DNA of 64,000 bases from Falsiroseomonas oryziterrae (GTDB taxonomy: Bacteria; Pseudomonadota; Alphaproteobacteria; Acetobacterales; Acetobacteraceae). Positions within the stretch are counted from its first letter, which is position 1, and every line of letters begins with the position of its first letter. The translations under genes were made by a program, and so were the position numbers. The DNA is taken from assembly GCF_021864505.1 (NCBI RefSeq), contig NZ_JAKJIB010000001.1, positions 1-64,000 on the forward strand, read 5' to 3'. The notes below the pieces were generated by a model, which saw nothing but the letters and a program-made list of their open reading frames with translations, was not told the origin of the DNA and made no database searches. This document shows, one piece after another, positions 1,121 to 62,317 of the stretch.

Positions 1121-2113
1121 CTACACCGTCAGCCTGGCGCCGGAGATCTCGACGAGGCGGCGCCAGATGGGCGTGTCACGACGGATCAACTCGGACAGCG
1201 CGGCGGGGCTCTCGCTCGTGGTCGGAAGGAAACCCATCTGGCGGAAGCGCTCGACGAAGGCGTGCTCGCGCGCCACGGCCGTGATGGCGGCGAACTGGCG
1301 CTGGACGATCTCCGCCGGGGTGTCCTTCGGCGCCATAAGCGCGTTCCAGGTGGTCACGTCGAGGTCGCCGAGCCCGACGTCGCGGAAGTTGCGCATGCCG
1401 GGCACGCCGGGGATCAGGGGAAACTCGTCGGCCGAGGAGACGGCCAGCGCCCGCAGCCGCCCCTCCGCCACGTGCGGCAGGAGGATCGTCGGCACGTCGA
1501 ACATCATGTCCACCGTGCCGGTCAGCATGTCCTGCAACGCCGGCGCGCCGCCGCGATACGGCACATGCGTCACCTCCGCCCCGCCCATCGCGCCGAGGGC
1601 GGAGATCAGCAGGTGGCTTGTGGTGCCGGCGCCCGAACTGCCGCCGCGCAGCCCACCCGGATTGGCGCGGGCCCAGCGCATCATCGCGGAGAAGTCGGTC
1701 CAGCCGTTGCGCCGCGCGGTCTCGGCGTTCACGACGCAAAGTTGCACGCCGGAGGTGATCTGCGTCACCGGCGTGAAGTCGCGCTGCGGTTCATAGGGGA
1801 TGCGGTCGTAGAGAGTGGGAAAGGCGCAGAGTGCGGATACGCCGATGACGCCGAGCGTGGTGCCATCCGGCGTGCTGCGCGCCACGTTCTCGGCGCCGAG
1901 CATGCCGCCCGCACCAGCCCGGTTGTCCACCACCGCCGTCTGACCGGAAAGATGGGCCGGAAGCCGTTCGGCCAGCAGCCGGCCGATCAGGTCGATGGCG
2001 CCGCCGGGCACGAACGGAACAACGATGCGGAGAGGCCGCGCGGTTCCCTGGGCACGGGCAAGGCCAGGCAGCGCGAGCACGCCGGCGCCAAGCAGCACGT
2101 GACGTCGGAGCAT
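1121..2113 (-). CDS. Bug-family tripartite tricarboxylate transporter solute-binding protein
   Basis: A 330-residue periplasmic binding protein. It begins with a twin-arginine-like signal (MLRR, a hydrophobic run, cleavage probably after LARA at about residue 21), followed by the Bug hallmark RPLRIVVPFVPGGAIDLIGR, where the PGG loop contacts the ligand carboxylate. The DNRAGAGGMLGAENVARS segment near residue 65 is also typical. Family members capture carboxylates or other small acids for TctAB permeases. No TctA or TctB genes lie nearby, so this is one of the many orphan Bug proteins seen in Acetobacteraceae and Burkholderiales. The ligand is unknown. The length is normal for the family. Confidence 0.92.
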   Translation of the reverse strand: MLRRHVLLGAGVLALPGLARAQGTARPLRIVVPFVPGGAIDLIGRLLAERLPAHLSGQTAVVDNRAGAGGMLGAENVARSTPDGTTLGVIGVSALCAFPTLYDRIPYEPQRDFTPVTQITSGVQLCVVNAETARRNGWTDFSAMMRWARANPGGLRGGSSGAGTTSHLLISALGAMGGAEVTHVPYRGGAPALQDMLTGTVDMMFDVPTILLPHVAEGRLRALAVSSADEFPLIPGVPGMRNFRDVGLGDLDVTTWNALMAPKDTPAEIVQRQFAAITAVAREHAFVERFRQMGFLPTTSESPAALSELIRRDTPIWRRLVEISGARLTV

Positions 2114-2184
2114 CGTGATACCTCATCATCTCGTCGGCGCTGCCACTCTGGCGGTGCCCCCACGAGCATTGCAAGCGCCATGCC

Positions 2185-2934
2185 TCAGGCAGGCGGCAGG
2201 CGTTCCAGCACGTGGATGAGAACGGCTGCGGCGACCGAGACATTCAGGCTTTCCACGCGGCCGGAACCCGCCAGCGTCACGCGATGCGCGCAGGCCGCGA
2301 CCGCGGCCGGCGTCGGCCCGACCTCCTCGTTGCCGAGCAGCAACGCGAATGGCTTGCCGCGCGGCAGAGCCTCGGGCGTGACGCCGCCCTGCGGAACGGC
2401 CGCGACGGTCGTGAAGCGGGGCGCCATGGCGCGCAGCGCGACGGCAAGGTTCGGCACGCGATGCAGCGAGAGATGTTCCAGCCCGCCTTCCGACGTCCGG
2501 TAGGCCGCGTCCGACAGGCCCGCCTGGCGCGGATCGCCCGAGAGGAGCAGGCCGCTGCAGCCGAAGAAGGCGGCGGAGCGCGCGATGGCGCCGAGGTTGT
2601 GCGGGTTCCCCACGGCGTCGAGCACCGGCAGCACGCGCGCCTGCAGCAGTTCCGCCGGGAATGGGGCACCCAGTTCCGGCACCTCGCGCGGAATCGCAAC
2701 GGCGACGATGCCGCCGTGATGGGCGCTGCCCGCGATCCGGGCGAGTTCGTCGGGCGGCACCTCGCGATAGGGCCTGCGCGTCGCGGCCATCAGCTTGCAG
2801 AGTGGCCCGGCCTCGCGGCGCCGGGCAGCGACGTAGAACAGCCGCAGGACAGCGTCCGGGCGCTTCGCAAACAGCGCCGCAACGGCGGATACGCCTGCGA
2901 TCCGATCCGTCTCGGTCTGGCGCGCGCCGCTCAT
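2185..2934 (-). CDS. TrmH-family (SpoU/SPOUT) RNA 2'-O-methyltransferase
   Basis: A 249-residue protein that should transfer a methyl group from SAM to a ribose 2'-OH in tRNA or rRNA. The N-terminal part (about 1-95) resembles the SpoU substrate-binding domain. The C-terminal knot carries motif 1 NPHNLGAIAR at 110-119, motif 2 LLLGNEEVGPT near 195 and motif 3 ESLNVSVAAAVLIH near 228. The start at 2934 was chosen because MSGARQTETDR begins there and its ATGA overlaps the stop of the upstream Ldh-family gene by four bases, so the two are translationally coupled. The open frame continues further upstream, but inside that neighbour. The target nucleotide cannot be inferred. Confidence 0.9.
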   Translation of the reverse strand: MSGARQTETDRIAGVSAVAALFAKRPDAVLRLFYVAARRREAGPLCKLMAATRRPYREVPPDELARIAGSAHHGGIVAVAIPREVPELGAPFPAELLQARVLPVLDAVGNPHNLGAIARSAAFFGCSGLLLSGDPRQAGLSDAAYRTSEGGLEHLSLHRVPNLAVALRAMAPRFTTVAAVPQGGVTPEALPRGKPFALLLGNEEVGPTPAAVAACAHRVTLAGSGRVESLNVSVAAAVLIHVLERLPPA

Positions 2935-3929
2935 GCCATGTCGCGCAAGCTGCGCAGAAGGGCGTCCGGCACGTCGATGCCATCGCGCATCGCGCGGGAT
3001 GCCAACTCGGCGCGGCGGCTGCCGGGAAGCCGCACATCCGGATCGGCGAGCATCGCCTCGATCAGCGTCTCGACGCGGTCGAAGAAGCGGTCGCGACCGG
3101 CGAGCGCGCCGGGATCCACGGCCAGGAGCGCGTGACCCAGCGCGGGCCGGTTGCCCGCCTCCTCGAAGAAGCTGTCGGCCTCGAACCCGAAGGCGGCGCC
3201 CGTCAGTGCGCAGCACAGCAGTTCCACCACGAGGGCTAGCAGCGCGCCCTTCGTCCCTCCCGCCGCGAGCATGGCGCCGGCAAGCGCGGCCTTGGCGTCC
3301 GTGGTGGGATTGCCCTCCGCGTCGATGGCCCAGCCGGGCGGGATGGGGCGGCCTTCCTTCGCGGCGAGCATGATCTTCCCGCGCGCCACCTCGCTCAGCG
3401 CCATGTCCACGACCAGCGGTCCGGCGTCGCGGCGCGGGAAGGCGGCGGCGATCGGGTTCGTGCCCATCAGGGCCCGGCGTCCACCCGGCACCGGCATGGC
3501 GGCCGGCGAGTTCGTGAAGGCGAGTGCGACAAGCCCGCGCCGTGCGAGCGCGGCGACCGGCAACCCCATCGCGCCCGCGTGATGGCTGTTGGTCACGCCG
3601 ACGAAGGCGACACCATGCGTGGCGGCGCGCAGCGCGGCCTCCTCGACGGCGAGGGCAAGCGCGGGATAGGCGAGCCCGTGCCGCGCATCGACGAGCGCGG
3701 CGCCACCGCGGGATGCGGCAATCCACGGCTCGGCCGTGCCGTCGGCCCGGCCGTTCCGCAGGAAACCGGCGTATTGCGGCACGCGCGAGAGGCCATGCCC
3801 CGATTGCCCCTCCGCCTCCCCCGCCACGAGTGCGACGGCCGTCAGCGAGGCCATCTGCGGGTTGGCGCCGGCAGCCAGCAGCGCGTCGCGCGCGAGCGCC
3901 TCGGCTTCCGCCAGGCTCACTCTAGGCAT
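2931..3929 (-). CDS. Ldh-family oxidoreductase (malate/L-lactate/L-sulfolactate dehydrogenase type)
   Basis: A 332-residue NAD(P)-dependent dehydrogenase of the archaeal-type MDH/LDH2 fold, unrelated to classical Rossmann lactate dehydrogenases. Visible hallmarks are SGHGLSRVP near residue 43, GVTNSHHAGAMG near 112 with the conserved His pair, the nucleotide-site segment MGTNPIAAAFP near 150, and GGTKGALLALVVELL near 220. Members reduce or oxidise 2-hydroxy acids such as malate, lactate, sulfolactate, ureidoglycolate or 2,3-diketogulonate; sequence alone does not settle the substrate. It overlaps the downstream methyltransferase start by 4 bp, which implies co-expression rather than a shared pathway. 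Confidence 0.9.
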   Translation of the reverse strand: MPRVSLAEAEALARDALLAAGANPQMASLTAVALVAGEAEGQSGHGLSRVPQYAGFLRNGRADGTAEPWIAASRGGAALVDARHGLAYPALALAVEEAALRAATHGVAFVGVTNSHHAGAMGLPVAALARRGLVALAFTNSPAAMPVPGGRRALMGTNPIAAAFPRRDAGPLVVDMALSEVARGKIMLAAKEGRPIPPGWAIDAEGNPTTDAKAALAGAMLAAGGTKGALLALVVELLCCALTGAAFGFEADSFFEEAGNRPALGHALLAVDPGALAGRDRFFDRVETLIEAMLADPDVRLPGSRRAELASRAMRDGIDVPDALLRSLRDMA

Positions 3930-61135: not shown

Positions 61136-61426
61136 GTGGAGGCCGAGGCCGGTCCCGACTGGCAACGGCTGGATGTCTGGCTCTGGTGCGCGCGCCTCGC
61201 GAAGACGCGCGGCGAATGCGCCCGCCTCGTCGCCGGCGGCGCGGTGCGGCTGAACCGCCAGCCCACCGACAAGGCTCATGCGAGACTGCGCGTCGGCGAC
61301 GTTCTGACGCTCGCCGTCCATGGCCGTGTCCAGGTATGGCGGGTGCAGAGATTGGCGTTGCGCCGCGGACCGCCGGCGGAGGCGCGGCTGCTCTACGAGG
61401 ACCTCGCTCCGCAGGACGGACCGTGA
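61136..61426 (+). CDS. S4-domain RNA-binding protein (HslR-like)
   Basis: A 96-residue protein. The S4 motif RLDVWLWCARLAKTRGECAR and LVAGGAVRLNRQPTDKAHAR occupies residues about 11-50, followed by LRVGDVLTLAV. HslR in E. coli rescues stalled 50S subunits carrying peptidyl-tRNA; a similar role is possible. The start is GTG at 61136, one base after the helicase stop, so it is translated with the helicase gene, fitting an RNA-handling pair. Confidence 0.9.
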   Translation: MEAEAGPDWQRLDVWLWCARLAKTRGECARLVAGGAVRLNRQPTDKAHARLRVGDVLTLAVHGRVQVWRVQRLALRRGPPAEARLLYEDLAPQDGP

Positions 61427-61436
61427 TCGGCACCGG

Positions 61437-61931
61437 TCAGTCGGCCCGCCGCCCGTCGCACTCGGGCTCCGTCTCGAGGACAGATTCGTGCAGCGAGCCG
61501 ATCTCCGCCACCGGCCGGCCGGTGGCATCGAGTTGGAAGAAACCCCAGGCCATGTCTCGAACCTCCGGCTCCAACTCACCCGGATCGGACAGCAGGCAGC
61601 AGATCGCGCAGAGAAGCTCGCGCTGCATATGGCGGACCACGGTGGTCAGGTCGTCTTCGGACACGCCGAGGGCCCTTATCCGGTCTAGCGCAGCGAGGGT
61701 GGGTTCCCCGCCGGGGCCGGGGTGAGCCCACAGCGCCTCTACCCAGGCCGGCCCGTTCCGCCCGACAAGCTGCTTCCACGCCTGCCGCAGGAAGAGGAAC
61801 CGCGCGAGTTGCGGAATGCCTTCGCGACGCTTCGATTGCGCCCAGGTGGCCGGCTCGCGCGCGCCAAGCTTGCTGAAGAGATCCGGAGCCGCCGCGGCGG
61901 CAGGAGCGGCTTGCCTTGTGCGGCGCGGCAG
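61437..61931 (-). CDS. Hypothetical protein, probable CTG start
   Basis: A 164-residue reading frame opposite the S4-fdxA gap that has no ATG, GTG or TTG over its first 90 codons. The translation is protein-like: [20 protein letters not shown] near 43, VEALWAHPG near 75, [20 protein letters not shown] near 100 and [20 protein letters not shown] near 130. Third positions are almost all G or C. CTG at 61931 lies nine bases after AGGAG; upstream is an in-frame TAG at 61944-61946. A shorter form from GTG 61664 would lose the well-formed N-terminal half. I recognise no family. It is divergent from fdxA. Confidence 0.62.
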
Positions 61932-61984
61932 GCCAATCCTCTCCTACCGGGGCGGGGCTTTTCCGCGCCGGGCCGGAGGCTGCA

Positions 61985-62317
61985 GTGACCTACGTCGTCA
62001 CCGAGAACTGCATCAAGTGCAAGTATATGGATTGCGTAGAAGTCTGTCCGGTGGATTGCTTCTATGTCGGCGAGAACATGCTCGTCATCCATCCTGACGA
62101 GTGCATCGATTGCGGGGTTTGTGAGCCCGAGTGCCCGGCGGAGGCGATTGTGCCCGATTCCGACGACAAGGCGTCCGCTTGGGTCGAGCTGAACCGCACC
62201 TACTCGACCCAGTGGCCAAATATCACCCGCAAGGGCGAGGCGCCGGCAGATGCCGACGACTGGAAGGACAAGCCAGGCAAGCGCGACCTCTTCAGTCCAG
62301 AGCCCGGCACGCCGTAG
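61985..62317 (+). CDS. fdxA: 7Fe-8S ferredoxin FdxA
   Basis: A 110-residue electron carrier. [20 protein letters not shown] near 8 holds the ligands of one cluster and [18 protein letters not shown] near 38 those of the other, in the Azotobacter-type 7Fe ferredoxin pattern; the C-terminal extension ([20 protein letters not shown]) is also typical. The start GTG at 61985 has GGAG at good spacing. A TATAAT-containing region lies beyond its stop, before carD. Neighbours match the common helicase/S4/fdxA/carD order. Confidence 0.95.

What the first reader, a model, noticed from the sequence alone, without database searches (positions are those of the whole stretch)
61437..61931. A protein-like gene opposite fdxA appears to start at CTG
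The minus strand has 164 codons of plausible sequence with consistent G/C third positions, but no ATG, GTG or TTG for the first 90 codons. CTG 61931 follows AGGAG by nine bases. Standard gene callers would truncate it to 75 residues from GTG 61664 or miss it. Either the rare start codon is real or a frameshift has removed the original start.
Basis: seen in the sequence. Interest (0 to 1): 0.5.

Follow-up and report, generated by a model that had tools for sequence, protein, structure and literature searches.

The report
Immunity-like gene that lost its start

Summary
The open frame is real. Minus strand 61437-61931 has 164 codons with no ATG, GTG or TTG before GTG 61664, and CTG 61931 has AGGAG nine bases upstream. 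Its body is a genuine protein: homologues align from about residue 17 to the end. One sits directly behind an RHS/HINT/AHH nuclease-toxin gene and another directly before an Imm63 immunity gene, so it is most likely an immunity protein, here without a detectable AHH toxin in the genome. In a sister genus the gene lies at the same place, between the S4-domain gene and fdxA, and can begin at an ordinary ATG. In the window, codons 1-7, including the CTG, overlap a fixed-spacing box (CTTG-N17-GGCCA, 61910-61935) found upstream of fdxA in 12 of 13 same-genus loci that lack the gene. So the CTG region is fdxA upstream DNA; the gene's own start and leader, about 70 bp by comparison, are missing. Whether CTG now works as a weak substitute or the gene is dying cannot be decided from sequence; I favour a start-less, poorly or not translated gene. 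A modest finding.

The parts
61437..61883 (-). Conserved body of the immunity-like gene (from about residue 17 to the stop codon)
   Evidence: Homologues match from residues 13-17 to 156-160 and align to the C terminus; codon-position bias
61884..61909 (-). Unassigned GC-rich stretch (Ala/Pro codons, residues 8-16) where the breakpoint must lie; holds a 14-bp palindrome 61888-61901
   Evidence: Does not align well with the starts of the G481, L002 or L003 homologues; palindrome; breakpoint inferred
61910..61935 (+). fdxA upstream box CTTG-N17-GGCCA, probably the fdxA promoter; overlaps codons 1-7 of the proposed CTG frame, the CTG included
   Evidence: Same box at fixed internal spacing in 12 of 13 same-genus fdxA loci without the gene (alignment); promoter role inferred
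61929..61931 (-). CTG codon proposed as start
61941..61945 (-). AGGAG, Shine-Dalgarno-like, nine bases before CTG; not shared by gene-less relatives
61662..61664 (-). First ordinary start codon in frame (GTG), would give 75 aa
61136..61426 (+). S4-domain gene, tail to tail with the immunity-like gene
   Evidence: Pfam PF01479 E 8.1e-11
61985..62317 (+). fdxA, ferredoxin
   Evidence: NCBIfam NF045490 E 2.9e-50

Best explanation
This is the body of an immunity-like gene that lies tail to tail with the S4-domain gene and head to head with fdxA, and that has lost its own start codon and leader. The break joined the body, at about 61884-61909, to the upstream edge of the fdxA promoter region, whose sequence happens to stay open in this frame. 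CTG 61931 and codons 1-7 are therefore fdxA upstream DNA, not the old start. Family function (inferred): the protein neutralises an AHH-type nuclease toxin carried by an RHS/HINT polymorphic toxin; here it would be an orphan immunity gene. Translation now is expected to be absent or very weak (from CTG, perhaps ATT 61937).
For: Box CTTG-N17-GGCCA in the window (61910-61935) and in 12 of 13 same-genus fdxA loci fetched; none of the 14 other genomes of the genus that were searched has the gene. G481, in another genus of the family, has the homologue at the same site and orientation with an ATG nine residues before the conserved Phe; DNA collinear with the window at 71% over 738 aligned positions from the S4 gene into the homologue. 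Between that ATG and a CTTGTC read by eye as the box lie about 75 bp in G481; between the matching codon and the box in the window, 5 bp. L002 and L003 homologues begin with ATG 13 residues before the Phe. Function: the L002 homologue starts 5 bp after an RHS/PT-HINT/AHH gene; the G1171 homologue is followed by an Imm63 gene; the L003 homologue lies among HEAT, ankyrin-thioredoxin and TPR genes. CUG starts work at 0.86% of AUG and make up 0.024% of bacterial starts, as quoted in passages of PMC11497404.
Against: The body is intact over 147 codons with no stop, and differences from G481 pile up at codon position 3 (35, 28, 58 of 145 codons), so any loss is recent or expression persists. AGGAG-like sites at this distance precede only 2.9% of CTGs. 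G481 does not match the box pattern itself. Only two of seven homologues outside the window show a toxin or a named immunity gene next door; G783 and G340 sit among ordinary genes. The window's genome is a fragmented assembly (735 contigs), one genome for the species.
Confidence: 0.6

Rival explanations
1. The gene lost its old start but now truly begins at CTG 61931, with AGGAG as ribosome site; a short stretch of fdxA upstream DNA has become the N terminus (start-codon capture).
For: AGGAG at nine bases, a distance and motif class seen for 73 of 2484 CTGs; intact frame and purifying pattern; a promoter-like site on the minus strand at 62050-62022 inside fdxA, 1 found against a mean of 0.1 in shuffles.
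Against: CUG is about 1% as efficient as AUG in the work quoted by PMC11497404; AGGAG is not conserved; the minus-strand promoter-like site lies in fdxA coding sequence; none of the homologues examined needs a CTG.
Confidence: 0.2
2. The assembly is wrong: about 70 bp with the real start were dropped or misjoined in this 735-contig assembly.
For: The matching stretch of G481 holds a 24-bp perfect palindrome, a kind of sequence that assemblies and polymerases can drop (general knowledge); single genome for the species.
Against: Box, its spacing to fdxA and the body are each clean in the sequence; no reads available to test it.
Confidence: 0.12
3. A single-base frameshift near 61880-61930 hides an ordinary start, for example TTG 61936, which has AGGAG four bases upstream in another frame.
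For: TTG 61936 exists in a neighbouring frame.
Against: That TTG too lies at the edge of the fdxA box that gene-less relatives share, so it would not be the old start.
Confidence: 0.05
4. Only the 75-residue C-terminal part from GTG 61664 is made.
For: It is the first ordinary start in frame.
Against: It would lose the most conserved block ([18 protein letters not shown], residues 37-54).
Confidence: 0.03

Closest known systems
Immunity proteins of AHH-type polymorphic toxins (Imm11, Imm20, Imm23, Imm24, Imm43, Imm-ank in PMC3482391; passages read)
   Same: One homologue is encoded directly behind an AHH toxin; small stand-alone protein; patchy distribution; one homologue beside another immunity gene
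   Different: No match to any Pfam or NCBIfam family, so it is not filed under those Imm families
Orphan immunity genes (PMC10539506 and PMC12247911; start of abstract seen in the listing)
   Same: No AHH toxin detected in the window's genome at E 0.01
   Different: Not in an immunity island here; sits alone between housekeeping genes and lacks an ordinary start codon
Bacterial genes with CUG start codons (passages of PMC11497404)
   Same: In-frame CTG with an upstream AGGAG
   Different: The CTG region is fdxA upstream DNA shared with relatives that lack the gene

Membership tests
Polymorphic-toxin immunity protein | Encoded directly downstream of its toxin gene | tested here: inconclusive
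   True for the L002 homologue (5 bp behind RHS/PT-HINT/AHH); not for the window gene, whose neighbours are S4 and fdxA
Polymorphic-toxin immunity protein | Neighbourhood of other immunity genes where no toxin is present | tested here: inconclusive
   True for G1171 (Imm63, E 4.2e-21); suggestive for L003 (HEAT, ankyrin, TPR); not for the window, G481, G783 or G340
Named Imm family of Pfam or NCBIfam | Profile match above cut-off | tested here: not met
   no family for the window protein (0 hits at E up to 1) and no significant one for its homologues
Polymorphic-toxin immunity protein | Binds and neutralises the toxin | not testable with these tools
   Needs co-expression or binding assay
CUG-initiated gene | Start position conserved in homologues as part of the gene | tested here: not met
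   Homologues have ATG/GTG in frame; the CTG region is shared instead with gene-less relatives as fdxA upstream DNA
CUG-initiated gene | Initiation measured at the CUG | not testable with these tools
   Needs reporter, ribosome profiling or N-terminal proteomics

The most novel reading that the evidence does not exclude
The deletion did not kill the gene: it captured a CTG and an AGGAG from the back of the fdxA promoter region, so an immunity protein is now made at low level from a rare start codon inside a promoter shared with an iron-sulphur gene, in a family of AHH immunity proteins that no Pfam or NCBIfam model covers.
Probability: 0.2. Interest if true: 0.5.

Novelty: new member of a known kind. 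Interest (0 to 1): 0.27.

Why it matters
It shows how an apparent rare start codon can come from a neighbour's promoter region after the true start is lost, a trap for gene callers and for lists of CUG starts. It also points to a small family, without a Pfam or NCBIfam model, that is probably immunity to AHH nuclease toxins. If the CTG did work, it would be a natural test case for how a gene regains a start codon.

Tried and rejected
One-off recent insertion: the distance from the end of the S4 match to fdxA, 562 bp in the window against 88-172 bp in the 12 same-genus loci with both genes, first suggested it; G481 at the same site spoke against it. Transfer of the whole S4-gene-fdxA block between the window and G481: a tree of S4+fdxA DNA, 30 rows, puts the window with gene-less genus mates and G481 with gene-less G482, so no block transfer is seen; an ancestral gene with many losses and separate gains at one site remain undecided. 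Structure: the AlphaFold model of A1 (3 sequences) had mean pLDDT 45 and was not used for a fold search. Solved-structure sequences: 3 weak hits, best E 0.5, taken as chance. PADLOC: one weak hit of one homologue (E 0.019); PHROGs: one weak hit (E 0.27); both dropped. Phages and viral contigs: none. Matches dropped from the homologue count: G038/L004 (E 5.7e-5, residues 5-51, two stops inside, against a frame that looks to me like recF; not found again with A3) and G584/L041 (E 1.9e-4, inside a 1155-aa frame, not examined). G340 is kept as a weak, partial homologue (E 7.3e-5).

Full report
Observation. The minus-strand frame 61437-61931 exists as described: 164 codons from CTG 61931, 168 from the preceding stop, first ordinary start GTG 61664 giving 75 aa. 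AGGAG (61945-61941) precedes CTG by nine bases. Among all CTGs of the window on both strands, 73 of 2484 have a comparable 5-mer at a comparable distance. GC at codon positions 1, 2, 3 is 0.74, 0.50, 0.83 for residues 18-164, like its neighbours; residues 1-9 (0.78, 0.78, 0.67) and 10-17 (1.0, 0.88, 0.62) do not show this.

Neighbours. On the plus strand lie a helicase-like gene (name by eye, no search), an S4-domain gene (61136-61426; PF01479) and fdxA (61985-62317; NF045490). The gene is tail to tail with S4 (10 bp apart) and head to head with fdxA.

Homologues. The window protein matches no Pfam or NCBIfam model at E up to 1. One scan of genome contigs found two relatives: L002 (record titled Brevundimonas sp. 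MAG, 50%) and L003 (Planctomycetota MAG, 45%). A plasmid search with the L002 protein found one record of 72,556, Streptomyces canus NZ_CP108710.1, 35%. Whole-genome searches at E 0.001, the window's genome included in all but: relatives, 59 genomes: own, plus one judged spurious; phylum, 398: own and weak G340; order, 299: own, G481, weak G584; family, 397: own, G481, G783; genus of G481, 35: G481 only; class, 385: own and G1171; order of G1171, 43: itself only. These sets overlap. None of the 14 other genomes of the window's genus has it. The family is therefore rare and patchy. In the 5-row alignment, 27 columns are invariant, from F19 to P156.

Function. The L002 homologue (ATG 2968) follows by 5 bp a 909-aa ORF with RHS repeats, PT-HINT (E 9e-24) and a C-terminal AHH nuclease domain (PF14412, E 1.3e-11): the usual place of a cognate immunity gene. 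The G1171 homologue is followed by an Imm63 gene (E 4.2e-21). The L003 homologue lies in a row of HEAT-repeat, ankyrin-thioredoxin and TPR genes; ankyrin and HEAT proteins are listed among immunity proteins, ankyrin with Tox-AHH, in passages of PMC3482391. Against: the G783 and G340 homologues lie beside ordinary genes (RidA-like and pyridine-nucleotide oxidoreductase; DUF2306 and DnaJ), and the window and G481 genes beside S4 and fdxA. AHH was searched in seven genomes: found in 2 of 7, L002's genome and G783; in G783 it is on another contig than the homologue. The window's genome has none at E 0.01 (one E 0.255 match below the cut-off). I infer an orphan AHH immunity protein, probability about 0.6.

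The start. G481 has the homologue at the same site, tail to tail with S4 (about 4 bp) and opposite fdxA. DNA from the S4 gene into the homologue is collinear at 71%. In G481 an ATG stands nine residues before the conserved Phe (an ATG 21 codons further up is also in frame); L002 and L003 start 13 residues before it. The matching window codons (6-10) are AGG CAA GCC GCT CCT. Upstream of fdxA, a box CTTG-N17-GGCCA occurs in the window (61910-61935) and in 12 of 13 same-genus fdxA loci fetched; the exception is L010, and the genus member G014 gave no fdxA locus. An ungapped 40-base comparison places the window segment at that box in L006, L008 and L017 (27-29 of 40 against a shuffled maximum of 24); in the ten other genus loci it does not clearly exceed shuffles (20-24 of 40 against maxima of 23-26), so for those the evidence is the box alone. 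G481 does not match the box pattern; a CTTGTC about 102 bp before its fdxA is my reading by eye. On that reading 75 bp separate ATG and box in G481 but 5 bp in the window, so about 70 bp with start and leader are missing. CTG 61931 lies inside the box.

Locus history. Of 30 S4 loci of the family, 21 reach fdxA downstream and 9 do not. In 17 of the 21 the distance from the end of the S4 match to fdxA is 64-198 bp; the other four are the window (562), G481 (650), and G601 and G581 (761, 774), whose gap holds a different plus-strand gene that looks to me like a YbaK-type deacylase (no family search run). So this junction accepts genes. The S4+fdxA tree separates the window from G481.

State of the gene. 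Between window and G481, differences at codon positions 1, 2, 3 are 35, 28, 58 of 145 codons. Of 73 positions where L002 and L003 agree, the window alone departs at 8, G481 alone at 4, both at 13. This shows past constraint on the protein and no clear decay; the loss of the start, if real, is recent or harmless. CUG starts work at 0.86% of AUG and make up 0.024% of bacterial starts, as quoted in PMC11497404 (passages).

Verdict. Shown: frame, homology of the body, overlap of codons 1-7 with an fdxA upstream box shared by gene-less relatives, ordinary ATG in the same-site homologue. Inferred: loss of about 70 bp, promoter role of the box, immunity function, weak or absent translation.

Noticed in passing
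L054, L056 (G601, G581), between S4 and fdxA: A different gene, on the plus strand and YbaK-like to the eye, occupies the same S4-fdxA gap in two genomes of genus g4.
   Followed up: partly
L003, about 2931-2960 and 3499-3527: A repeated GC-rich motif stands between genes of the planctomycete row of HEAT, ankyrin-thioredoxin, homologue and TPR genes; could be cassette boundaries.
   Followed up: no
L082 (G783 C60) 1465-3180 minus: An AHH-domain protein with a long Pro/Ala-rich N part, followed by an unrelated 222-aa gene that is presumably its own immunity gene.
   Followed up: partly
window 62050-62022 minus: Promoter-like site antisense within fdxA pointing at the gene (CGGACA, 17, TATACT); 1 found against 0.1 in shuffles.
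   Followed up: no
window 61888-61901; L040 1435-1458: Perfect palindromes of 14 bp (window) and 24 bp (G481) near the gene start.
   Followed up: no
L041 (G584): Weak match to the family profile inside a 1155-aa frame (E 1.9e-4).
   Followed up: no
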